Below are positions 2,660 through 50,163 of a stretch of 64,000 bases of DNA, in pieces (position 1 is the stretch's first letter; every line of letters starts with the position of its first letter). The translations under genes were made by a program, and so were the position numbers. The notes under the pieces are model-generated. The model saw only the letters and a list, made by a program, of their open reading frames with translations. It was not told the DNA's origin and searched no databases. Source of the DNA: Cinnamomum chago (taxonomy: Eukaryota > Streptophyta > Magnoliopsida > Laurales > Lauraceae); NCBI GenBank assembly GCA_038049695.1, contig CP142458.1, positions 44,671,501 to 44,735,500 of the forward strand. The letters are read 5' to 3'.

Positions 2660-3880
2660 CAAACTGAAAGTCCACGAGGATCCTAACCCTAGAGGGGGGG
2701 GGGGGTGAATAGGGTGAGCTACAATTGTGACCAATTTAAACCAATTTTAATTTCTCAAACTAAACTAGTCACATGTGATGAATTATCATACAATATGCGG
2801 AAGCTAATACAAAAACAAACACCACATAGCAATCACCACAACACAATATTTATAGTGGTTCGGCCAACGTGCCTACATCCACTACCGGCTTGTGTATCCA
2901 ACACCCCACCGGATTCCACTATTTATGCTTTTTACTAGGCTAAGCAATAACCCTTACAATGATGCTTTTCAAGGCTAAACAACAACCTCTCAATGTGCTT
3001 TTAGAGGCTAAGCAATAACCTTTACAAAATGCTTTTCTTAGGCTAAGCAATAACCTTACACAATGCTTTTCTTAGGCTAAGCAATAACCTTTACAAATCA
3101 ATATTTCTCTAAGAAAGTGTTTACTCAACACTCTAAGAGATTACAATTTAAGCTCAAATAAATTGCCTCTAAATAGGCGAATATGAAAATGAAAATCCTA
3201 ACTCACACAAACACTCAATGAATGCAAAGATGTATGCTTATGAAGTGTGTGTGTGAAAACTTCAATCAAGTTTAAAAGTAAGCTCAATCAATTTATGCTT
3301 AATGCAATTTGAAAGTTTAAGGCACAAAAAGATATGATTGAAGTTCTATGCAAATCACTTGAACAATTACACACTTGTGAATGATATGAAAATCTAAAGA
3401 TCACAAGTTGTATGAAAGTGTTTAAGCCTAATCAAGTGATGCATGTGCAATGTTGTTTTCAAAAACTAATTTGACTAAAGATTAAATGAATGAAAACAAC
3501 AAGGGAAGTTTCAACCAAGTGAAGTAATCATGCAATAAAGGAAATCAAAGATTTATGGCTAAGCATGATTAAGAAAGTTTAAAACAAAACTTGGGTTGAA
3601 ATCAAAGTGATGAATCCAATCTTGAATATCAAAGATGGAGGGAAGAAAGGATTCAACACATCATTGTTATCATGCTTGAAATCATTTTCCAAAGTTTCAA
3701 ATAAAGCACATAACAAATGATTAATTAAAAGTAAAACTTACTTGGAGATTTAACTTAGTTGATCCAAGCTTAAGCTTTACTTAATGACCCCTTGATGTCT
3801 CTTAGATCATCCCCTTTGTCTTCTCTCAAAGCTCCTCAAAGAGGGTTTCAAAATCTCCAACCAAAGACAAAGGAAAGAAC

Positions 3881-3894
3881 TCATTTATATCCCC
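3881..3894 (-). promoter_or_regulatory. TATA box in element E LTR
   Basis: The minus strand reads GGGGATATAAATGA. It lies in the expected U3 part of the LTR, downstream of the palindrome cluster. The same site occurs in the other LTR at 9,920-9,933, which would be the active promoter copy. Transcription start is inferred about 30 bp further left. Confidence 0.6.
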
Positions 3895-3917
3895 AAAACA
3901 GCCCAACGGCTATATCC

Positions 3918-4072
3918 CCGGTTGACCGGCCATGACAGGCCGGTTGACCGGCCAAGCACAACGGTCATAAAAATGCCCGTTTGAGCTTCAGAAACCCGGT
4001 TAACCGGCAGTCTGGCCGGTTGACCGGGCCTCTTGGCCGGTTGACCGGCCACACATGGCCGGTTGACCGGGC
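3918..4072. promoter_or_regulatory. Six-copy CCGGTTRACCGG palindrome cluster (E 3' LTR)
   Basis: Cores GGTTRACC start at 3,920, 3,942, 3,998, 4,018, 4,039 and 4,061, giving steps of 22, 56, 20, 21 and 22 bp. One copy is a perfect palindrome (CCGGTTAACCGG); the others are near-perfect. The cluster sits 25-190 bp upstream of the LTR TATA box, a natural place for paired binding sites of a dimeric factor. That role is inference. Confidence 0.7.
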
Positions 4073-4569
4073 CTGCCCAGAAATTCCCATTTTTTGGGTT
4101 TCTTGAAGATTTTCTTTGGGGATCTTTTGGGCCATTAAAATCAAGCTTTTTCACATGTTTTAAATCATTCAAAGATGTATAAAAACATGAAACATCCAAA
4201 GCCTAAAATGATTTGAAACTTTAAACCATAGGCTAGCTTGATTTCTAAAAACTCCCTTTTCAAAAACAATGCATACATATATGATTATGAAGGGATGTAT
4301 GTATGCAAAGTTCAAACCTAAATTGACAAGATGATTTTCCAAATATAATGCACAATGAATTAGGTTTTCAAAAGAGTTTGAGTTTCAAAACCAATGCATC
4401 CAAGTTTAAAACCAAAACATGCATAAAACAAGAACTTTTCCAAATCTTAAAAGCTATGCATGTATGAAACTAAATTTCAAGGTTTTCTAAAACAATGCAA
4501 GTGTGAGAATTCAAATGATGCTAAAGTGCAAATGCATCCACCAAATTGCAAATTACAAAATCCCTAACA

Positions 4570-5194
4570 ATCTCCCCCTTTGCAATTTGATGGCAACTTA
4601 TTCATCATTGACATTTCACACTAAGTCTTCAGCTCCCCCTAAGCTGGACAAGTCTTGAAATCTTCTTGGATGCTCTTCCTCTTAGCTTGGGCTCTTGGGC
4701 TCTTTTCTTCAATCTTCTTGATGCTTGGAGCTTGATCATTCTTCAAGCTTTCTTTTCATCTTCCTCTCTTTGGCTAAGCATCTTCTTTAGCTCCAAGCTT
4801 TCTTTCTTCTATTTGCTCTCCCCCTTTGACCATGCCTCTTTCTCCCTTTGGCAAGGTATGCATTCTCTCCCCTTTGGAAGCTTGGACAACTCTCCCCCTT
4901 TGATGGATAGGAGATCTTCGAGTACTTGAACTCTCGAACTCTCTCCCCCTTTGAAGAGTAGGAGATCTTTGAGTCACACTTGAACTCTCTCTCCCCCTTT
5001 GACATTAAATTGCAAAGGTACCTACACACATGAAACAAGAAGAATACCTTTAGTAGCACCTGTTAACAAATGGAATTGAAAATGAAATTCATAACAGGCT
5101 ATCATGCATGAAAGTTATCTCTAAGGGCTCAAAGGCAATCCAAGGGTGAATTTGATCAAACTAATACTTCCTATGAAGGTTTACACTCCCCCTC
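4570..5194 (-). repeat. Polypurine tract plus an array of extra tracts (E)
   Basis: The normal tract (minus strand AAAGGGGGAGAT) abuts the LTR at 4,570-4,583. Similar purine runs recur at 4,817-4,833, 4,841-4,853, 4,864-4,877, 4,890-4,906, 4,939-4,956, 4,986-5,002 and 5,185-5,194, several sharing the core CTCTCCCCCTTTG on the plus strand. No protein is encoded here. Element F has the same arrangement. Confidence 0.75.
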
Positions 5195-5219: not shown

Positions 5220-7010
5220 TTTTGACAAGATATAACTATTAGATTCAAGCAGTAGATGGTTTAACCAAGTGAGGGTCAACTTCAAGGAAAGGATTAGATT
5301 CATATAACTATAGGGCTCATATGATCAAATTACCAAAAGAGAGCAAGGTCTAATGGGAGAAACGATCATGGATACCAATTGAAATAAACATATCAATTGA
5401 GATTAAAGGATGTGACTATAAACTCAATCACTCTAAAATGGATTTAAAAGTATAACTATTAGGAAAAAAATCCAAATTGGAGCTATCCATGATGCAATGG
5501 GGTTTACTAAACATAGCATTAAATAATTTAACTATGGAAAGCATATGCTATGTAAAGTTTTGAAAATCATTTCATTCAAACAATAAATATGACTATTAAT
5601 GTGCAAGAATGAGTGAAATGAAATTCAAACATGAAGCTAACCTCTACTAATAACCAACCAATATTATGAACACATAAACATGGTGGTCATGAGATATACC
5701 TATAAGAGCAAAAGAGGTGGCAACATGAACATTATGATGCTAATGGAATGTGACATGGAATGAAAACATATAACTATCAAGATCAAACCAATGTACACAA
5801 GGTCTATCACATACACAAGATAAGGTATCAATTGGATATGAAATCAATGGAAAGTTATACCAAATGAAACCAATTGAATATGACAACATGATTAAAAGCA
5901 AGGATGTGACAAACCCAAAATCCCATCAAGCATCATAAATGCATATTCATCACTTTTAAGGATATAACTATTGAGCATAGTGATGAACTAGGCAAATTGC
6001 AATGCAAAAGGATATGACTTGGTAATGCATGCAATTTCCAAAGTGTCAAAATCATATGAATTCAACAACTAAGATATCCATCAAACAAGAGATATAACTA
6101 TGAAAAAGGAATGGATTTCAAAGAGGTTCATATGATCAAGAACACTATTATGAAGTTGAAACATGTATAAAGATGACAACATTAAGAAGGTATACATGAA
6201 TCAACATCATAACCATCCAAAAAGAAATGACTATTAGGCATAGAGGATGGATTTGGGTTCTAGTATGGTTTCCAAAAATAAAACTAAGAACACAACCATA
6301 CATGGAACCAATTGTCATTTGCATATGCAAGGAAAGTAAACAAACAAGCAAAGATGCAAACAACAAACATTTCCATTTCTAAAGATAATGAAACCAAAAG
6401 AAAAAGAAATGAAAACATGGAACATGCTCAAAAGATTATAACTAATGAAGTTATGGAGCATTTCCATTCAATCAATCTTCAAATCATTTTGATAAACAAA
6501 ATCCAACAATGAGCATAAAAGGAATGATTTTGAAGATCAATTTTCAACTTTGTATTTGAAAAGATATAACTTAGATGAGACACATACAAGTTGATAATTC
6601 AAAACAATGAATTTCCATATAAGGGTATAACTTATAAATCCATGGAGAAATTTGAATTGAATCAAATCATTTGATTTACAAAAAGGATCTAACTAAGACA
6701 TACATCAAATGATTCAACAATTGATCATGAAGAGTCTAGCTATGAAAGCTTTTGAAATCACAATCAATTGATCATGTAAAGAAATGCAATGCAAGACATA
6801 TGTGTGCAAAAGACAAATCAAACATGATGAAATTATAATCAAATGATTTTGAAAACCATGACATGTAACTTAGAATGGTGCATGAAAACAAAATCAATTG
6901 ATCATAAAGAAGCAATGCATTTTAATAAATGTAACTAAAAGAAACAAAATGCAAAGCAACATGACCAACAAAATGATATAACTTAAAAAGAATAGGTTGG
7001 TCATGAAGGT
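5220..7010 (-). repeat. Hairpin array with shared loop motif (E)
   Basis: This AT-rich, non-coding stretch holds about nineteen copies of a motif close to RRATATAACTATTARGCA, roughly one per 90 bp. Many copies lie in the loop of an inverted repeat. Clear stems: 5,439-5,445/5,468-5,474; 5,512-5,519/5,545-5,552; 5,946-5,954/5,979-5,987 (9 of 9); 6,545-6,555/6,584-6,593; 6,665-6,675/6,704-6,714 (11 of 11); 6,917-6,923/6,946-6,952; 6,960-6,969/6,996-7,005 (10 of 10). Weaker ones: 5,568-5,577/5,607-5,620; 6,477-6,488/6,523-6,535; 6,611-6,618/6,642-6,651. Stem sequences differ from hairpin to hairpin. Function unknown. Confidence 0.8.
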
Positions 7011-7018
7011 TCAAGGCC

Positions 7019-8608
7019 CTAAGGTTTGTCAAGGTAAATAACTTTAGGAATCCACCTAAGGTCTTGAGTGGGTTGAACTTTGAAGTCAAGTTTGGACTTC
7101 TCACCAACTAAAGGAGATTTGACTTGATAAATTTTCAAATTAAACTTATCACCAAGATATTTAGATTTGACTAAATTTAGCTTAGATTGGTGATTAGTCT
7201 TTTGATGTTGGTGAGTTTGTTTCTTAGGGGATTGATTCATTTTTCTTTTCTTCTTATTTTCTCCCTTTCTTTGACTTTTGAAATTTAGATTTAACTTTGT
7301 AATTTTCTTCAAAAGTTCTTTCATGTTTTGACTTAAGGGAGTTAGGTTGAGAAGCTTTTTGTTAATAGATTCTTTTAAACTTGGTTTGACTTGTTTAACC
7401 TTTTTAGAATCTATTTTTGGAGACTCCATTTTAAGAGATTTAACTTGTTTAGACATTTTGGAGTCTTTCTTGATTTTTAGTGTCTTACCCTTCATAGGTT
7501 TTGATTCTCCATTTTTTAGTTCAAAGATGGGTTTAGACACATGGCTTCTTTTTCTTAGTTTGCACTCAAACATAAAATGCCCTTCTATGCCACAATAATT
7601 GCATTTGGTTTTGGGCAAAGGAGAAAGAGTGCTAGAGAATGAGGACTCACCTTTCACAAAAGTGTTGGTGAATTTAGGGTCATAAGACATATTCCTATTA
7701 AATCCAATACCCGTCCTATCTCCATGAGATTTACCCAATTTGAATAATTTTTCAAGTTTCTCTTCACTTTGGGTAAACTTGCACTCATACTTTTGTTTAT
7801 AGCTTTCAAGTTGAGTGACTTTGGTTATAAGGATTGAATTTTCATGTTTGACTTTTGAAAGTTCATTTTCAATTTCCTTATATTTGCTTAGCTCTTCATA
7901 GGCAAGTTTTAACTTAGAATTAAGCTCATTAACAACATTAGATCCAAGTTCTAAAGTTTTTGAATTACTTTGAGCATTAGACAAATTTTCATTTGAAATT
8001 GTCAACTTGGATTTTAAATAGTTAATGTTTTCATCTTGTCTTTTAATTGTATCTCTTAGGTTACAATTTTCCTTTTTAAGCTCATCACAATTTATCTTAG
8101 TCTTATTTAATTCATCTTGAGCATTTGATAAATTTTCCTTAGAGATAGACAATTTAGATTCAAGATTGTTAAAGTCTTTATCTTGCCTTTGTAATTGATC
8201 TCTTAGTTTTAGATTTTCCTTTTTGACATTCTCATAACCCATCTTTAATTCTCTTAGCTCATCTTGAATGTTAGATTGGTTATTTAAAGAGATCATGAAC
8301 TTAGAGTCTAGACATTTTATTACTTCTTCTTTCTCTCTAAGTTCATCTTTTGAAGAGGCTAGATCTTTGGTTAGATTCATAGATTCTTCTCTTAAGCTTT
8401 TGTTTCTTTTATCAAGCTTTGTAGATAATGTATATAATTCATTGTAGGCTTGTTGAAGATCATCTTCATCATACTCATTTTCTTCCTCTTTTGAGTCAAA
8501 TTGATATTCATTTAATTGATGGTTTGAATCTCTAATAGAAGGAAGAGTGAGAGGTCTAGAAGAATCTACAAAGTCTAGCCTAGTGGAGTCCATTCTAATG
8601 ATTTTCAA
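7019..8608 (-). CDS. Gag-like coiled-coil protein with CCHC zinc knuckle (element E)
   Basis: An open frame of 529 codons, the only long one in element E. Residues about 45-290 are Lys/Glu/Asn-rich with heptad-like runs, a predicted long coiled coil (for example DDLQQAYNELYTLSTKLDKR near the N-terminus). A single CX2CX4HX4C zinc knuckle (CNYCGIEGHFMFEC) lies at about residues 336-350, and the C-terminal third is a Lys-rich basic tail. This resembles the C-terminal half of Gag in some plant Copia elements, where the knuckle binds RNA; the usual N-terminal capsid-type region is not evident. Translation could begin at residue 1 or at the Met in MDSTRLDFVD. It lies between the 5' LTR and the hairpin array, so the protein and the structured RNA come from one transcript. 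Role in packaging is inference. Confidence 0.8.
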   Translation of the reverse strand: MKIIRMDSTRLDFVDSSRPLTLPSIRDSNHQLNEYQFDSKEEENEYDEDDLQQAYNELYTLSTKLDKRNKSLREESMNLTKDLASSKDELREKEEVIKCLDSKFMISLNNQSNIQDELRELKMGYENVKKENLKLRDQLQRQDKDFNNLESKLSISKENLSNAQDELNKTKINCDELKKENCNLRDTIKRQDENINYLKSKLTISNENLSNAQSNSKTLELGSNVVNELNSKLKLAYEELSKYKEIENELSKVKHENSILITKVTQLESYKQKYECKFTQSEEKLEKLFKLGKSHGDRTGIGFNRNMSYDPKFTNTFVKGESSFSSTLSPLPKTKCNYCGIEGHFMFECKLRKRSHVSKPIFELKNGESKPMKGKTLKIKKDSKMSKQVKSLKMESPKIDSKKVKQVKPSLKESINKKLLNLTPLSQNMKELLKKITKLNLNFKSQRKGENKKKRKMNQSPKKQTHQHQKTNHQSKLNLVKSKYLGDKFNLKIYQVKSPLVGEKSKLDFKVQPTQDLRWIPKVIYLDKP

Positions 8609-8695
8609 ATAAGGACAACTCTAGGGTTTTAACTCTAGGTTTTTACACCTAATCAAGAGTTCCAAACACTTGATCCTAAGGGATAGAGCACTTGT

Positions 8696-8706
8696 CTCTG
8701 ATACCA
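8696..8706 (-). promoter_or_regulatory. Primer-binding site, tRNA-Met type (E)
   Basis: The minus strand reads TGGTATCAGAG two bases after the end of the 5' LTR. This matches the 3' end of plant initiator tRNA-Met, the usual primer of many plant LTR elements, and fixes the direction of element E. The segment 8,609-8,695 is leader with no other feature seen. Confidence 0.85.
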
Positions 8707-8708
8707 AT

Positions 8709-10587
8709 TGAAAGTCCACGAGGATCCTAACCCTAGAGGGGGGGTGAATAGGGTGAGCTACAATTGTGACCAATTTAAACCAATTTTAATTTCTCAAACT
8801 AAACTAGTCACATGTGATGAATTATCATACAATATGCGGAAGCTAATACAAAAACAAACACCACATAGCAATCACCACAACACAATATTTATAGTGGTTC
8901 GGCCAACGTGCCTACATCCACTACCGGCTTGTGTATCCAACACCCCACCGGATTCCTCTATTTATGCTTTTTACTAGGCTAAGCAATAACCCTTACAATG
9001 ATGCTTTTCAAGGCTAAACAACAACCTCTCAATGTGCTTTTAGAGGCTAAGCAATAACCTTTACAAAATGCTTTTCTTAGGCTAAGCAATAACCTTACAC
9101 AATGCTTTTCTTAGGCTAAGCAATAACCTTTACAAATCAATATTTCTCTAAGAAAGTGTTTACTCAACACTCTAAGAGATTACAATTTAAGCTCAAATAA
9201 ATTGCCTCTAAATAGGCGGATATGAAAATGAAAATCCTAACTCACACAAACACTCAATGAATGCAAAGATGTATGCTTATGAAGTGTGTGTGTGAAAACT
9301 TCAATCAAGTTTAAAAGTAAGCTCAATCAATTTATGCTTAATGCAATTTGAAAGTTTAAGGCACAAAAAGATATGATTGAAGTTCTATGCAAATCACTTG
9401 AACAATTACACACTTGTGAATGATATGAAAATCTAAAGATCACAAGTTGTATGAAAGTGTTTAAGCCTAATCAAGTGATGCATGTGCAATGTTGTTTTCA
9501 AAAACTAATTTGACTAAAGATTAAATGAATGAAAACAACAAGGGAAGTTTCAACCAAGTGAAGTAATCATGCAATAAAGGAAATCAAAGATTTATGGCTA
9601 AGCATGATTAAGAAAGTTTAAAACAAAACTTGGGTTGAAATCAAAGTGATGAATCCAATCTTGAATATCAAAGATGGAGGGAAGAAAGGATTCAACACAT
9701 CATTGTTATCATGCTTGAAATCATTTTCCAAAGTTTCAAATAAAGCACATAACAAATGATTAATTAAAAGTAAAACTTACTTGGAGATTTAACTTAGTTG
9801 ATCCAAGCTTAAGCTTTACTTAATGACCCCTTGATGTCTCTTAGATCATCCCCTTTGTCTTCTCTCAAAGCTCCTCAAAGAGGGTTTCAAAATCTCCAAC
9901 CAAAGACAAAGGAAAGAACTCATTTATATCCCCAAAACAGCCCAACGGCTATATCCCCGGTTGACCGGCCATGACAGGCCGGTTGACCGGCCAAGCACAA
10001 CGGTCATAAAAATGCCCGTTTGAGCTTCAGAAACCCGGTTAACCGGCAGTCTGGCCGGTTGACCGGCCACACATGGCCGGTTGACCGGGCCTGCCCAGAA
10101 ATTCCCATTTTTTGGGTTTCTTGAAGATTTTCTTTGGGGATCTTTTGGGCCATTAAAATCAAGCTTTTTCACATGTTTTAAATCATTCAAAGATGTATAA
10201 AAACATGAAACATCCAAAGCCTAAAATGATTTGAAACTTTAAACCATAGGCTAGCTTGATTTCTAAAAACTCCTTTTTCAAAAACAATGCATACATATAT
10301 GATTATGAAGGGATGTATGTATGCAAAGTTCAAACCTAAATTGACAAGATGATTTTCCAAATATAATGCACAATGAATTAGGTTTTCAAAAGAGTTTGAG
10401 TTTCAAAACCAATGCATCCAAGTTTAAAACCAAAACATGCATAAAACAAGAACTTTTCCAAATCTTAAAAGCTATGCATGTATGAAACTAAATTTCAAGG
10501 TTTTCTAAAACAATGCAAGTGTGAGAATTCAAATGATGCTAAAGTGCAAATGCATCCACCAAATTGCAAATTACAAAATCCCTAACA
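8709..10587 (-). repeat. Element E 5' LTR
   Basis: Partner of 2,665-4,569, with about three substitutions between them. It has seven G in the G-run (twelve in the partner) and five palindromes rather than six, one 21-bp unit fewer. The cores start at 9,959, 9,981, 10,037, 10,057 and 10,079, and the TATA box is at 9,920-9,933. Confidence 0.93.
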
Positions 10588-10592
10588 CAAAC

Positions 10593-11739
10593 TACCAATC
10601 ACACTAGCATAGTCAAGTTGTGCCACACTATCACCATTATTCTTTACTAATTTAATACTTGGATCAAAAGGAGTGGACACTGGTTTACAGTTAAAGTGAT
10701 CAAACTTTTTCAACATTATTTCAATGTAATGTGATTGAGTCAATTTAATTCCAGTGTTATCTCTAATAATTTTAATTCCCAGATTTACACTTGCTTCTCC
10801 CAAGTCTTTCATATCAAAATTATTGGAGAAAAGTGACTTTGTTTCTTTGACACAATCCAAATTAGTTCCAAAGATCAACAAATCATCAACATATAAGCAT
10901 AAAATTATTGTAGACTCACCAAAAGTTTTATAGTAAATACATTTTTCAACCTCATTTATTTTGAAGCCATTTGAAAGAATAATCTTATCAAACTTCATAT
11001 GCCACTGTTTTGGTGCCTGTTTTAGTCCATATAAGGACTTTAACAACTTACACACCTTATGCTCTTGTCCTTTTATTTCATAACCCTTCGGTTGATACAT
11101 ATAAATCTCCTCCTCTAGATCACCATTTAGAAAAGTTGTTTTTAAATCCATCTGATGAATATATAAATTATGCACAGCAGCTATAGAAATCAAAGTCCTA
11201 ATGGAACTTATTCTTGATACAGGTGAAAAAGTATCAAAGAAATCTACCCCATCCGTTTGCCTAAAGCCTTTGGCTACTAGCTTGGCTTTGTATTTCTCTA
11301 TTGTTCCATCAGGTCTTAGTTTTTTCTTAAGGACCCATTTGCACCCTAAAGGCTTGGTACCTGAAGGTAAATCAGCTAGTTCCCAAGTATGATTTGCTAA
11401 AATGGTTTCTATTTCATCATCTAATGCTTCCTTACAAAAGGCAGCATCATGGGCAGACATTGCCTCCTTATAAGTAGATGGGTCCTTTTCTATTAGATAA
11501 GTCTCAAAGTCAGGACCGAAACTAGTGGATGTCCTAACTCTCTTGCTTCTCCTAAGTTGGGGTACCTCTTCTTCTGGAATTTCCAAAATTCTTGTAGATG
11601 AGGGGGTTTCAGATGTAATTCTAGTTTTAAAAGGAAAAACATCTTCAAAGAAGTCTGCATCTCTAGACTCAACTAGAGTTTGGTCTCCAATTTTCAGGAA
11701 TCTATAGACAGCACTATCTTGTGCATAACCTATGAACAC
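10593..11739 (-). pseudogene. Copia-A reverse transcriptase region
   Basis: The minus strand carries a long Ty1/Copia reverse transcriptase: KWVLKKKLRPDG, KARLVAKGF-type KAKLVAKGFRQ, MDLKTTFLNGDL, YGLKQAPKQWH and the catalytic LYVDDLLIFG. The frame ends at the insertion point of element E, after ASVIGSL. The enzyme would copy element RNA into DNA. It belongs to the broken Copia-A element and is a fossil. Confidence 0.9.
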
Positions 11740-11923
11740 ACATTCCCATCAGTGGGGTCCTAACTTCGGCCTTTTGGGGTAAACTATCCTAACATGGGCT
11801 AGACAACCCCAAACTCTAAAATATCTAAGGTTAGGCTTTCTTCCCTCCCAAATTTCAAAGGGTGAACTGTTAGTCTTAGAATGTAAAATTCTATTTAAGA
11901 TATAACAAGAAGTCAACAAAGCT

Positions 11924-12750
11924 TCACCCCCACAGATTTTTTGGACAACTGGATGAATTCATCATACAATTAACCATTTCAATCAAAGTCCGATTTTTTC
12001 TTCCTGCTATCTCATTTTGTTGAGGTGTGTAAAGAGTAGTAGTTGTCCTTTTAATTCCTTGGGATTCACAGAAGTCCAGAAAGTCTTTTGAAGTGTATTC
12101 ACCACCTCTATCACTTCTAAATTTAATTACTTTTCTATTTAATTTATTTTCAACTTCAGACAAATAAATTTTAAATTTAGATAAAGCTTCATCTTTAGTT
12201 CTAAGTAAATATACATAGGTATATCTAGAGCAATCATCAATAAAAGTAATAAAATAGTATTTTCCACCTCTAGTCATAGTGTTACTTAAATCACATATAT
12301 CAAAATGCACTAACTGAAGTAACTCAGTTTCTCTGTCCACTTTATGAAAAGGCTTTCGAGTAATTTTGGATTGAGAACATATTTCACATTTCTTATTTTC
12401 ATCTTTATATTTCTCAATCAATCCATCATTACTCATACTTTTTAATTTTATAAAATTAATATGTCCTAGTCTACCATGCCAGTCAAAAACAAAAGCAACT
12501 ATGTAAGCAGAAGAGGATGCATTATTATTGATTACATTTAACTTAAACATACCATCACAAGCATAACCCTTACCAACAAAAATACCTTTTTTACTAATTA
12601 CAAACTGATCAGACTCTATTACCTGCTTGAAGCCGGCTTTGTTGAGAAGAAAACCAGAAACTAAATTTTTTTCTCATCTCTGGAGCATGAAGCACATTCA
12701 GCAATATCACAGTTTTTTTGGAAGTGAATTGAAGTTCAACCTTCAGTTAG
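11924..12750 (-). pseudogene. Copia-A integrase and protease remnant
   Basis: The minus strand shows the Copia integrase: zinc-binding HHCC region (WHGRLGHINF, CEICSQSKITRKPF) and catalytic core pieces (VHFDICDL, FITFIDDCSRYTYVYLL, KFRSDRGGEYTS, TTTLYTPQQNEIAGRKNRTL). Beyond about 12,560 a short remnant of the Gag/protease junction remains before the element stops near 12,750. The copy is broken. Confidence 0.85.
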
Positions 12751-12914
12751 TAACTCGCATCATTGATTTTTGGAAAACTCCAAAAATTAGGGCGCTTTCC
12801 TAATCCAAATTAGGGCAGTGTCAACATTCTATGCATGCACCCCCTATTTCTAGCAAGATGCCAAAAGTAATGCGCAATTTTAAATAGGAAAGTCAGAAAG
12901 TCACCTTTACTGGC

Positions 12915-12934
12915 GCTCCCCGGCAACAGCGCCA
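12915..12934 (-). promoter_or_regulatory. Primer-binding site, tRNA-Asp type
   Basis: The minus strand reads TGGCGCTGTTGCCGGGGAGC. Athila-like Gypsy elements use tRNA-Asp as primer and show almost this sequence. It sits about 25 bp from the estimated LTR end. Confidence 0.75.
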
Positions 12935-14094
12935 AAAGCATCGGACCCCAAGTATAGGGTGCAATTGTAGTAATAATCTGGTGAGTCTAGGTCGATCCAC
13001 AGGGAGCAATGCTTTTTAAGAAGCTTTCCAACTTTAACGTGTCCTAATTTAGAAACTAAATCTAACCTAATAAAGAAACTAATCAAATTACAAGAAAATT
13101 CCTAAAAACTGAAAATTAAAAATTACAACTTTCCAAATAAAAAAATAAACCTAAACTAAATAAAGAAACCTAGTTTATTCAATCATATTCTAACTATAAC
13201 CTGCAAAGCTGACAAACTCATCAAAACAACCAATTTAATATAAAATAAATCAAAACAAATTTTCCTAAATTAGATCCTAATTACCAAAATCACGTTTTAT
13301 GCAAATATGAATGATCTATAATTCCCTAAATACTAACAATGCAATTTTATGCAAGTTTTTATAAATCTGATGCATGCTGTAAAAAATTCTAAGTATGGAA
13401 ACTCTTACACAGGCCCAATTTCACTGGACTGTACGACTAGTCTAAGATGATATGAACCTAAATCTAATGGCTGGAATCAATACTCTGATGATGCATGAAC
13501 ACAACAAAAAACAAGAATGGAAAAAGGACTTAAACGAAAAAGATATGATCACCTAAAGATGCCTACTTGAACTAGTTATGATGCTGAAATCTGATCGTAG
13601 GCTGTCCAACTACCCATGTTTGGGCCCATGGTTGACACGGTTCCCGAGGTTATTTTTGATTGAAGTTCTGGGGTTTCAAAGTCCAATTACCATACTTTAA
13701 ATCTGTTATTTTTCGGACCAAAACATTCATGTTTACATAGTTTTTAAATTGCGCACTTTTGTAGCATAGTTGGGTCAATTCTGCTGAAATTGTATAGAAT
13801 TTTTCACTATTCACATATCAAGTCCGAATTTAGTCTTTCTAATCAGTTCATAATCTTGTGATTTTAGCAACAAAAAACTTGATCTAATGCAATTTCTAAA
13901 TATGATGTATGCACAAAGACACTTTCCACCCATATATCACTACAAGAAATCTAGGCTGTTGTGACGAAATTTGATGACGAAATTTTTTTTGTCTTAAAAA
14001 GAACACCCAAAGAGGACGAAATATAAATTTTGTCATTTGTTTTCATTTTTTCCAAAAGTATAGAAGACGAAAAAAATTTTTCATATGCAAAAAT

Positions 14095-14900
14095 AAGGCG
14101 CCAACGTCATTTGCGTTGGCGCCAATTATTTTAGCTCATTGGAGACGAACATTTTTGTCACAAAATATTTTTTTTTGCGACGAACGTAACTTGTCACCAA
14201 TAAGGATAAGTTATGGAAGACGAACATATTTCGTCACCAAAATAAGGCGCCAATTTCATTTGCTTTGGCGCGAATTATTTTAGCTCATTGGAGACGAACA
14301 TTTTTGTCACAAAATATAATTTCTTTTTGCGATGAACGTAATTCGTCACCAATAAGGATAAGTTATGAAAGACGAAAATATTTGGTCACCAAAATAAGGC
14401 GTCATTTTCATTTGCGTTGGCGCGAATTATTTTAGCTCATTGGAGACGAACATTTTTGTCACAAAATATAATTTTTTTTTGTGACGAACGTAATTCGTCA
14501 CCAATAAGGATAAGTTATGGAAGACGAACATATTTCGTCACCAAAATAAGGCGCCAATTTCATTTGCTTTGGCGCGAATTATTTTAGCTCATTGGAGACG
14601 AACATTTTTGTCACAAAATATAATTTTTTTTTGTGACGAACATAATTCGTCACTATTAAGGATAAGTTATGGAAGATGAAAATATTTGGTCACCAAAATA
14701 AGGCGCTAATTTCATTTGCGTTGGCGCAAATTATTTTAGCTCATTCGAGACGAACATTTTTGTCACAAAATATAGTTTATTTTTGCGACGAACGTAATTC
14801 ATCACTAATAAGGATAAGTTATAGAAGACGAAAATATTTCGGCCAACAAAATAAGGCTCCAATTTCATTTGCGGTGGTGCCAATTTCATTCGTACTTGAG
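14095..14900. repeat. Six tandem ~151-bp units in CACTA-1
   Basis: Units begin with AAGGCG or a variant at 14,095, 14,244, 14,396, 14,548, 14,700 and 14,853, a period of 149-153 bp. The first unit begins with a GGCGCCAA / TTGGCGCC inverted repeat about 11 bp apart; later units keep it imperfectly. Each contains several GACGAA/TTCGTC motifs. The array multiplies the putative transposase-binding motif. Confidence 0.85.
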
Positions 14901-42124: not shown

Positions 42125-44580
<2,456 letters not shown>

Positions 44581-45150
44581 ATCTCCCCCTTTGCAATTTG
44601 ATGGCAAACTCACTCACCACTGAGATTACACACTTAGTCTTCAGCTCCCCCGCAGCTGAACAAGGCTTGAAATCTTCTTGGATGCTCCTTCTCTTAGCTT
44701 GAGCTCTTTTCTTCATTCTTCATGATGCTTGGTGCTTGAGCATTCTTCAATCTTTCTCTTCTTTAGCCAAGCATCTTCTTTAGCTTCCAAGCTTTCTTTC
44801 TTCTATTTGCTCTCCCCCTTTGACCATGCCTCTTTCTCCCTTTGGCAAGGTATGTATTCTCTCCCCTTGTAGAAGATCATACAAAAACCTCCCCTTAGGA
44901 AGCTTGGACATTCTCTTCACCCTTTTGAGAACTTGCATAATTTCTCCCCCTTTGCCATTAAATTGCAAAGGTACCTACACACATGAAACAAGGAAAATAC
45001 CTTTAGTAGCACCTGTTAACAAATGAAATCGAAAATGAAATACATAACAGGCTATCATGTGAGGTAGTAGTCTCTAAGGGCTCAAAGACAATCTAAGGGT
45101 CAATTTGATCAAAACTAATTCTTCCTATGAAGGTTTACACTCCCCCTCAA
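44581..45150 (-). repeat. Polypurine tract and extra tracts (F)
   Basis: The standard tract at 44,581-44,593 is followed by similar purine runs (minus strand) at about 44,645-44,652, 44,809-44,823, 44,860-44,868, 44,942-44,953 and 45,139-45,147. The same layout is seen in element E at 4,570-5,194. Confidence 0.7.
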
Positions 45151-45179
45151 TCCATTCTCTCCTTTTGTCAAACTCTTGA

Positions 45180-47300
45180 CAAAGATTTAACTATTAGGTA
45201 CAAGAAGAAGATGGTTTATCTAAGTGAGGGTCAACTTCAAGGAAAGGATTAGATTCATATAACTATAAGGCTCAATATGATCAAATTACCAAAAGAGAGC
45301 TAGGTCAATGGGAAAAGCAATCATGGATATCAATTGGAAAAACAAAGAATACCAATTGAGATGTAAGGATATGACTATTAAATCAATCACTCTAAAATGG
45401 ATTTAAAAGTATAACTATTATGAGAAATCCAAATTAGAGCTATCCATGATGCAATGGGGTTTATTAATCATAGCATCAAATAATCTAACTATGGAAAGCA
45501 TATGCTATGAAAATCTTGAACTCATTTCATTCCATCAAAAAAATATGACTTTTAAAGTGCAAGATGAGTGAAATGAAATTCAAGCATGAAGCCAACCTCA
45601 ACTAATAACCAACCAATATTATGAACACATAAACATGGTGGTCATGAGATATACCTATGTGAGCAAAAAGAGGTGGCAACATGAGCATTATGATGCTAAT
45701 GGTGTGTGACATGGAACAATCATATTACTTATCAAGTTCAATCCAATGCACACAAGGTTTATCACATTCACAAGAAATCAAATCAATCAAACATTATACG
45801 AATTGAATCCAATTGAATTTGATAACATGATAAAGAGCAAGAATGTGACAAAATTCCATCAAGCATCATAAATGCATATTCATCACTTTTAAAGATTTAA
45901 CTATAGAGCATAGTGATGAACAAGATAAATTGCAATGCACAAGGATATGACTTTGAAATGCATGCAATTTATAAAGTGACTAAATCATATGAATTCAACA
46001 TCTAAGATATCCATCAAACATATAGAAATATGAGGAACAGATTTCAAAGAGTTTCATATGATCAAGAACACTACTATGAAGTTGAAACATGTATAAGGAT
46101 AATATCACTTAGAGAAAATACATGAATCAACATCATAACCATCCAAAAAGAATATGACTAGAAAGCATAGAGGATGGATTTGAGTTCTAGTATGGTTTCA
46201 ACAAATATAATAAATACCACAACCATACATAGAACAATTTGACATTTGCATAGAGAGGATCAATCAACACTCAAGATCTAACTCATACCAATCATCAAAA
46301 GAATATAACTATTTAAGCACAAGAAGGTATGAGGTTAAAAGGATCAATCTATCATGTAACATCTCCACTCTTAGCAAATGTACTAAGCTTACAATGCAAT
46401 GAAAAAGGATATGAGGTCTATACCAAATGAACTTAGCACATTAAATCACATATGTACTTATTAGGCTCAAATGCAAGATTTTACTATAAAGCACATAAAC
46501 ACTCATTAATTTGCATTAATGAAACTATATACCAAAATAGGCACAAACATGCAAATCAATGAAACCATATCCAACCATGCAAAGTAAGACAACAAAATCA
46601 ATTTGCATAAAGAATGTAACTAATAGAGCAAAGATGCAAATTGTTTGTAAGAATTATTTCCTTCCAAATGATATAATCATAATTAGGCACAAGGAAATAA
46701 ATTCAAGGAAAATGCTTCTAGAAATATAACTAATAAAGCTTAGAACATTCTCCAAAGTTTTTCAAATCACTTCAATGTATGAAGTTCCAACAAAGAATCA
46801 TTTATAGAATTAAGAGCAAGTGATTTTGAAAAACAAAAGGTGTACTATTGTAAGATTTTCAATTTTTGAAACAATAGACACTCACAAATTTTCCATATCA
46901 AAAGATATAACTTGTAAATCAATGGAAAACTAAAGTTGCTTCAAATCATTTGATTTCCAAAAAGGATATAACTATGACAATCATCAAATGATTTTCCAAC
47001 ATCAATTGATCATGAAAAACTAGCTATGAAAGCATTTGTAATCACAATCAATTGATCATGAATAGATATGCACTACAAGAGATATAACTATATGAACAAA
47101 ATGCAAATCCATCATGTAAGTAATGCAACCAAAGGATTTTGAAAACCATGAGATATAACTTAAAAGTTCATGAAGACAAAATCAAATGATCACATAGAAA
47201 CATTGCATTTTAAAAGATGTGACTATAAAGAAACAAAATGCAAATGTAACATGACCAACAAAAAGATATAACTAAAAAGCATAGGTTGGTCTAGGGGTAT
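45180..47300 (-). repeat. Hairpin array with shared loop motif (F)
   Basis: About twenty copies of an RRATATAACTATWARGCA-like motif, many in hairpin loops. Clear stems: 45,879-45,887/45,912-45,920 (9 of 9); 46,599-46,608/46,634-46,643 (10 of 10); 46,654-46,663/46,691-46,700 (10 of 10); 46,943-46,954/46,983-46,994 (12 of 12); 47,205-47,211/47,235-47,241; 47,253-47,259/47,285-47,291. Several correspond in order and stem sequence to hairpins of element E. No protein frame exists here. Confidence 0.8.
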
Positions 47301-47565
47301 CAAGGCCTTAAGGTTACTCAAATAGTCTACCTTTGAAAATACACCTAAGGTCTTGAAAATGTGTCCTTGAGAGATCAGTTTGAGGACTCACCAACTCTAG
47401 AAGATATAACTTAGAAAAGTCTTAGAGTGGTGCAAAGAGGCTAGGGAAAAACATTTTCAAACATAGTGGAAATCTTTAAAACGATATGCAATAAAAACAC
47501 AACACTAGGGTTCAAATCTAGCAAGGATCAACTCCGGGTTGTTAAGCCCTAAAATGGAGTAACCC

Positions 47566-47577
47566 GCTCTGATACCA
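47566..47577 (-). promoter_or_regulatory. Primer-binding site, tRNA-Met type (F)
   Basis: The minus strand reads TGGTATCAGAGC two bases after the 5' LTR. 47,301-47,565 is leader with no other feature seen. Confidence 0.88.
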
Positions 47578-47579
47578 CT

Positions 47580-50163
<2,584 letters not shown>

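What the first reader, a model, noticed from the sequence alone, without database searches (positions are those of the whole stretch)
5220..7010. Array of hairpins with variable stems and one conserved loop motif in element E
Directly visible: about nineteen copies of an RRATATAACTATTARGCA-like motif in 1.8 kb, at least ten of them between inverted arms. Examples: 5,946-5,954/5,979-5,987 (9 bp), 6,665-6,675/6,704-6,714 (11 bp), 6,960-6,969/6,996-7,005 (10 bp). The arms differ from one hairpin to the next while the loop word stays, the reverse of what decaying tandem repeats or inverted transposons give. Constant loops on changing stems are the pattern of RNA hairpins recognised by a protein through the loop, like dispersed packaging signals in some RNA viruses. 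The only protein encoded by the element is a Gag-like protein with a zinc knuckle, so a natural idea is that Gag reads the loops (TGCYTAATAGTTATATCY on the RNA strand) to package the non-autonomous RNA. The function is inference.
Basis: partly seen in the sequence, partly recalled or inferred. Interest (0 to 1): 0.87.

Follow-up and report, generated by a model that had tools for sequence, protein, structure and literature searches.

The report
Hairpin array in plant jumping genes
A family of plant jumping genes that lack their own copying enzymes carries about twenty predicted RNA hairpins whose stems differ while the same short word sits in most loops; the stems are kept by selection, and the array probably marks the RNA for capture by proteins borrowed from another element.

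Summary
Element E (7.9 kb, 5-bp target duplication) is a non-autonomous LTR retrotransposon with Sirevirus junction hallmarks. Its array holds 22 copies of the word, all on one strand, lying in predicted loops between paired arms that are largely unrelated from hairpin to hairpin. A second, young element in the window (F, 42.8-49.4 kb, about 80% identical, no ORF of 120 aa) and a third lineage (G, partial) carry the same kind of array. Over 42 non-redundant copies the arms vary half as much as the rest (0 of 1761 and 0 of 2131 circular shifts). Changed pairs regain pairing more often than slid controls: clearly for F-derived stems, weakly for E-derived ones. So it is a selected structure. What reads it is inference: packaging or RNP assembly in trans is my best guess (about 0.45). 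The 'Gag-like' ORF has a zinc knuckle and coiled coil but no detectable capsid domain; it is under purifying selection, yet F keeps the array without it. Against loop reading: within families the word varies more than the stems. Folding excess is modest, and no strand bias shows that RNA rather than DNA is selected.

The parts
5220..7010 (-). Hairpin array of element E (sense strand is minus): 22 words (plus-strand starts 5226, 5298, 5406, 5446, 5522, 5583, 5690, 5764, 5958, 6008, 6088, 6221, 6274, 6432, 6518 (weak), 6560, 6621, 6683, 6730, 6859, 6925, 6972)
5559..5629 (-). Example hairpin: arms 5559-5578/5610-5629, 20 nt, 85% complementary
5940..5994 (-). Example hairpin: core 5946-5954/5979-5987 (9 bp)
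6665..6714 (-). Example hairpin: 6665-6678/6701-6714, 14 nt, 93% complementary
6833..6907 (-). Example hairpin: 6833-6851/6889-6907, 19 nt, 89% complementary; two pairs changed on both sides in F
6960..7005 (-). Example hairpin: 6960-6969/6996-7005, 10 bp
6148..6212 (-). Strong hairpin (22 nt, 86% complementary) whose loop holds no word at the thresholds used
7019..8593 (-). Intact ORF, 524 codons from its ATG (533 aa stop to stop, 7019-8620): coiled coil plus CCHC zinc knuckle, no capsid domain detected
8696..8706 (-). Primer binding site TGGTATCAGAG (identity as initiator-Met tRNA complement recalled)
8709..10587 (-). 5' LTR of E
2665..4569 (-). 3' LTR of E (98.4% identical to the 5' LTR); target duplication CAAAC on both sides of the element
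4572..5193 (-). Seven polypurine octamers AGGGGGAG; the terminal one is followed by AT/TG
4542..4589 (-). 11-bp inverted repeat around the PPT/LTR junction (4542-4552 / 4579-4589)
   Evidence: read by eye
45150..47310 (-). Hairpin array of element F: 23 words at 6 bits; 21 used in the pairing tests (the weak one at 46272 and one below 7 bits left out)
46253..46600 (-). Stretch of F with words at 46272 (weak), 46299 and 46474 that has no aligned counterpart in E
47400..47419 (-). Further word in F's leader (11.7 bits); short flanking arms seen by eye only
47580..49356 (-). 5' LTR of F; PBS at 47567-47577
42801..44580 (-). 3' LTR of F (99.6% identical to the 5' LTR); target duplication GACGT

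Best explanation
E, F and G are non-autonomous Sirevirus-type LTR retrotransposons (G seen only in part) whose internal region is to a large part a selected array of about twenty stem-loops in the transcript. Most stem-loops present one degenerate word (about UAGUUAUAUC) in a loop of about 20-30 nt; the stems hold the loop open, so their sequence is free but pairing is kept. Inferred: the array is a redundant, multi-site landing platform for a trans-acting nucleocapsid-type protein, either the Gag of an autonomous Sirevirus partner or the coiled-coil/CCHC protein of E acting as adaptor. It would load the RNA into particles, as dispersed packaging signals do in some RNA viruses. Shown: the array, loop placement by prediction, stem constraint, insertions with intact ends and no pol. 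Inferred: action at the RNA level, the reader protein, packaging.
For: Words on one strand only, 21 and 21 at 8 bits against under 1 in shuffles. Inverted repeats found without regard to the word enclose it in 12 of 18 cases (0 of 1761 shifts). Word core unpaired 0.64/0.61 against 0.47/0.45 with paired segments on both sides: 0 of 1901 and 0 of 2261 shifts; G, 2 of 1321. Arms of stems scoring 20 or more vary 0.45 (E) and 0.50 (F) as much as the rest within families, 0 of 1761 and 0 of 2131 shifts; stems scoring 15 or more 0.38-0.61 after correction for base context. In alignable parts, changed pairs are Watson-Crick again in 104 of 490 cells for F-derived stems (slid mean 0.016, 0 of 30 slides reach it) and 45 of 615 for E-derived stems (slid mean 0.020, 2 of 30 reach it). 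F has LTRs 99.6% identical, a target duplication and no ORF of 120 aa or more; the array is about 2.2 kb of its 3.0-kb interior. E's ORF has a CCHC knuckle, pN/pS 0.50 in 13 of 17 copies, and 78 of the 81 best hits have no stop. Precedent: Gag-less BARE2 RNA is packaged into BARE1 particles, consistent with conserved packaging and dimerization signals (PMC3735527, passages).
Against: No binding, expression or particle data. The word as a whole is not better conserved than its surroundings within families, although its A and G are. A first column count over the whole array with loosely extended stems showed no stem effect. Over the whole array, compensation in E-derived stems did not exceed slid controls (0.064 against a mean of 0.058). 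The shared-to-singleton test did not separate selection from mutation. Folding excess is modest. G-U against A-C changes do not favour the RNA strand (36 to 23, slid 372 to 316, Fisher 0.34). No autonomous partner was identified.
Confidence: 0.45

Rival explanations
1. The array is an RNA export, stability or localisation element read by a host protein (like the constitutive transport elements of some retroviruses, recalled), not by a Gag-type protein.
For: Present in F, which has no ORF of 120 aa or more; the best-kept word positions are a short UAGU-like core, about the size of a host RRM-protein site (recalled); redundancy fits a dose-type signal.
Against: No host factor identified; E keeps an intact CCHC protein under purifying selection.
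Confidence: 0.22
2. The stems matter, not the loops: the array is a structural spacer or template-jump/dimerization region for reverse transcription, or dsRNA that interferes with silencing; the common word is a tolerated AU-rich loop.
For: Arms are constrained about twofold while loops vary most; 6 of 18 independently found inverted repeats enclose no full word core of 8 bits.
Against: One word, in one orientation, recurring 22 times with unrelated flanks, and present also in word-bearing F hairpins that have no counterpart in E, is hard to get without selection on the word.
Confidence: 0.2
3. DNA-level or mutational origin: palindromes created by strand switching of reverse transcriptase at the word, or DNA cruciform sites.
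For: No strand bias in G-U/A-C changes; both strands fold alike.
Against: Neutral palindromes should decay; arms are constrained within E and F and between E and G, and partly compensated.
Confidence: 0.1
4. Chance or remnant tandem repeats.
For: Some arms share words such as ATCAATTGATC (seen by eye), so part of the array may come from duplication.
Against: Permutation, shuffle and shift controls.
Confidence: 0.03

Closest known systems
Sireviruses (Ty1/copia genus)
   Same: Several AGGGGGAG octamers before the 3' LTR, AT/TG attachment site, inverted repeat around the PPT/LTR junction (definitions from passages of PMC2829016)
   Different: No pol; the inverted repeat is 11 bp where that paper gives 28 bp on average; a hairpin array is not among the features in the passages read
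LARD and TR-GAG non-autonomous LTR retrotransposons
   Same: LTRs, PBS and PPT without pol; F has no ORF of 120 aa or more, E keeps a Gag-like ORF; [quoted passage not shown] LARD over 4 kb and TR_GAG named in a passage of PMC6696364)
   Different: An array of stem-loops with one recurring loop word is not described in the passages read; E's ORF lacks a detectable capsid domain
BARE2 of barley
   Same: Cannot express Gag and is packaged into a partner's particles (PMC3735527, passages)
   Different: BARE2 still has pol (recalled); no hairpin array in the passages read
Dispersed packaging signals of RNA viruses
   Same: Multiple sequence-structure motifs with a shared recognition motif (PMC6281560, abstract)
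   Different: Here in an LTR retrotransposon; no coat-protein binding shown

Membership tests
Sirevirus | Multiple AGGGGGAG PPTs clustered upstream of the 3' LTR | tested here: met
   7 in E, 4 in F, sense strand only
Sirevirus | PPT followed by AT/TG attachment site | tested here: met
   both elements
Sirevirus | Inverted repeat bordering the terminal PPT | tested here: met
   E: 11-bp arms 4542-4552/4579-4589, read by eye; shorter than the 28-bp average in PMC2829016
Sirevirus | Palindromic CGG-CCG repeated motif in the LTR | not tested
   not scanned
Sirevirus | Sirevirus-type pol | tested here: not met
   No second ORF of 120 aa or more inside E and none in F: a Sirevirus derivative by its junctions, not an autonomous Sirevirus
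Sirevirus | Large gag with central CCHC and downstream coiled coil | tested here: inconclusive
   Coiled-coil matches lie before the CCHC; no capsid domain at Pfam E up to 10
LARD | LTR element over 4 kb without coding capacity | tested here: met
   F: 6.56 kb, no ORF of 120 aa or more stop to stop; shorter ORFs not examined
TR-GAG | LTR element coding only for Gag | tested here: inconclusive
   E codes one CCHC/coiled-coil protein; capsid part not found
Dispersed packaging signals | Many stem-loops presenting one motif in the loop | tested here: met
   (by prediction)
Dispersed packaging signals | Coat protein binds the motif | not testable with these tools
   needs a binding assay
Dispersed packaging signals | Loop motif kept by selection across copies | tested here: inconclusive
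   Only the best positions are kept; overall not

The most novel reading that the evidence does not exclude
A non-autonomous plant retrotransposon family has reduced its genome to LTRs plus a multi-copy RNA recognition array. It hitch-hikes through a self-encoded coiled-coil/CCHC adaptor (E) that bridges the array to a partner's capsid, and F is a second-order parasite that uses the same adaptor.
Probability: 0.25. Interest if true: 0.86.

Novelty: new variant of a known kind. Interest (0 to 1): 0.7.

Why it matters
How non-autonomous LTR retrotransposons are recognised by their partners is, to my knowledge, largely open. Here the candidate signal is explicit, repeated about 20 times per element, found in every one of the 42 non-redundant copies aligned (they were chosen by matching the array), and separable into stems and loop words, so the question becomes directly testable. 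It would also extend the dispersed packaging-signal idea from RNA viruses to plant retrotransposons.

Tried and rejected
Whole-array column test with loosely extended stems: no stem effect (E-F divergence 0.174 against 0.188; changed pairs broken 0.745 against 0.753 for random pairs, E-derived stems of score 20). Whole-array compensation: E-derived stems 84 of 1320 cells against a slid mean of 0.058 (no excess); F-derived 137 of 738 against 0.021 (excess). E about 6327-6640 aligns poorly to F, so I trimmed stems and restricted E-F counts to alignable parts; that choice was made. The within-family tests used the whole array.

RNAalifold windows with column shuffles: arrays z -2.08 and -3.74, but the LTR control is -2.89, so not specific. 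Shared-to-singleton test: singletons are depleted in stems too (Fisher 0.11 and 0.89), so it does not separate selection from mutability; the context correction was added for that. Strand test: not significant. Rfam: three matches, 25-31 bits against gathering scores of 50-90. Protein relatives: only P0001 and P0002. Viral and genome contigs: no confirmed relative. Complements of the word in the sense strand of E and F, kissing-loop idea: none for the four words tried. Autonomous partner: not found; the requests meant for it did not complete.

Papers: PMC2829016, PMC3735527, PMC7215508 and PMC6696364 by passages; PMC6281560 by outline and abstract only; every other paper as a search listing only. 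Searches listed no title on such a hairpin array; the lists were capped and the library lacks most subscription journals.

Full report
What is there. Element E runs on the minus strand from 10587 to 2665, with LTRs 8709-10587 and 2665-4569 (98.4% identical), 5-bp target duplication CAAAC, primer binding site TGGTATCAGAG, and seven AGGGGGAG octamers before the 3' LTR, the last followed by AT/TG. An 11-bp inverted repeat borders that junction (read). These match junction features given for Sireviruses in PMC2829016 (passages), though the inverted repeat there averages 28 bp. E has one ORF of 120 aa or more (7019-8620 stop to stop) and no pol. The array lies between the ORF and the polypurine cluster.

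Second and third lineages. F (42801-49356) has LTRs 99.6% identical, target duplication GACGT, the same PBS and PPT signals, and no ORF of 120 aa or more. About 2.2 kb of its 3.0-kb interior is the same kind of array. E and F arrays are 81.6% identical on average over 17 and 25 non-redundant copies. F 46253-46600 holds words (46272 weak, 46299, 46474) with no aligned counterpart in E, and E's hairpin at 6539-6599 has no alignable counterpart in F. A third lineage, G (L061, 1351 bases after its ORF), is 89% identical to E, 83% and 79% to F over two parts, and holds 14 words at 7 bits or more. The genome is 1.06 Gb; the two array queries had 6702 and 5938 first-look candidates, of which 40 each were scored, so the copy number is not known.

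Is it more than chance. 22 words in E and 23 in F, none on the other strand within the arrays; at 8 bits 21 and 21 against 0.28 and 0.55 in shuffles. The matrix was trained on these arrays. Of 18 inverted repeats with spacers of 20 nt or more found without regard to the word, 12 enclose a word core (shift mean 4.5, largest 11, 0 of 1761). Flanks pair with their own partner better than with those of other words in E, F and G. In partition-function folding, the word core is more often unpaired than the rest in E, F and G, with paired segments roughly 15-20 nt away on both sides in E and F; the antisense strand gives the same for E and F. In the 12 E hairpins scoring 20 or more, the loop is 26 nt at the median and the conserved G sits 12.5 nt from each arm; one of the 12 has a 66-nt loop. 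Register-aligned flanks share almost no information between hairpins, though a few arms resemble each other. Stability itself is only modestly in excess.

Is it selected. Within families the arms (stems scoring 20 or more) vary 0.0254 against 0.0563 (E) and 0.0293 against 0.0590 (F); no circular shift of the stem mask reaches this (0 of 1761, 0 of 2131). Correcting for base context leaves 0.61 and 0.41 (E, singletons and shared variants) and 0.38 and 0.45 (F; stems scoring 15 or more). Between E and F, in alignable parts, stems differ at 0.076 against 0.155 in spacers and 0.159 in loops outside the core; between E and G at 0.031 against 0.092 and 0.099 (threshold 17). Changed pairs return to Watson-Crick in 104 of 490 cells (F-derived stems; slid mean 0.016, 0 of 30 slides) and 45 of 615 (E-derived; slid mean 0.020, 2 of 30). 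By distinct types it is 14 of 182 against 83 of 2221 (Fisher 0.017). Cells count copies, not events; seven pairs in each stem set carry a compensatory type. Most changed pair types still break pairing: 61% and 54% plain mismatches and 15% and 12% A-C. The stronger argument is the rarity of changes in stems, not compensation.

Results against. The first, looser test found nothing, and the whole-array compensation count for E-derived stems showed no excess. The word is not more conserved than its surroundings within families: E core 0.064 against spacer 0.055; E-G 0.136 against 0.092. Only its best positions are kept (A and G: 0.026 within E), and the separate count of high-information sites was not significant. 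Redundancy among some 20 loops could explain this, but so could a model in which stems matter and loops do not. The strand of action is not settled: G-U and A-C changes do not differ significantly.

The protein. The ORF product has coiled-coil-type matches and a CCHC knuckle (zf-CCHC 18.0 bits in E against a cut-off of 20.8; 24.4 in relative P0002) and no capsid domain at E up to 10. 78 of the 81 best genomic hits have no stop; those are the best-scoring hits and include tandem copies, so they are biased. pN/pS is 0.50 over 13 of 17 copies, 3' part of the frame. Only two relatives, 71% and 64% identical, were found in 5.8 billion proteins. Its end (RWIPK) recalls the end of Sirevirus Gag before the protease; that is from memory and untested.

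How it most likely works. An RNA that lacks pol, and in F lacks any sizeable ORF, must be chosen in trans. F has near-identical LTRs and intact ends, so it was chosen recently. The one large internal feature that it shares with E is the array. An export or stability role is the main rival.

Novelty. Non-autonomous LTR elements with conserved RNA structure are known (PMC7215508, passage), and Gag-less BARE2 is packaged in trans (PMC3735527, passages). My ten searches listed no title on an array of stem-loops with one recurring loop word in such elements. I rate it a new variant of a known kind.

Noticed in passing
own genome C11:25428536-25472464, C4:41063273-41102607, C9:40049813-40130105, C6:12032633-12050476, C3:76428448-76444685: Copies spaced head to tail at regular periods (about 6.0, 6.0, 6.0, 5.2 and 7.3 kb), recalling the Cassandra tandem arrays of PMC7215508.
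   Followed up: no
own genome C7:33258183-33303264 and copies on C2 and C3: F subfamily lacking 364 bp of the array (query 188-551), so the number of hairpins varies.
   Followed up: no
window 2936-3097, 8975-9136, 43058-43230, 47834-48006: 34-bp tandem repeats inside the LTRs of E and F; E's LTR folds at least as well as the array by z-score.
   Followed up: no
window 10588-13937 and 1-2660: E is inserted in a copia element (RVT_2 at 10582-11748, rve at 11924-12673; repeat 1-400 / 13537-13937 at 93%, probably its LTRs).
   Followed up: partly
window 7970-8245: 147-bp internal duplication in the coiled-coil part of the ORF (75% matches).
   Followed up: no
L001-L060 array alignment: Copy differences are largely A/T exchanges and T-to-C rather than C-to-T decay, so they may have arisen during replication; the high A/T exchange is unexplained.
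   Followed up: no
window 6302-6376 against F 46592-46648 and L061 about 660-715: One hairpin seems shared by E, F and G, with the loop word present in F and, weaker, in G but lost in E (by eye).
   Followed up: no
window 14090-14885: 152-bp tandem repeat, 5.2 copies, 91% matches.
   Followed up: no
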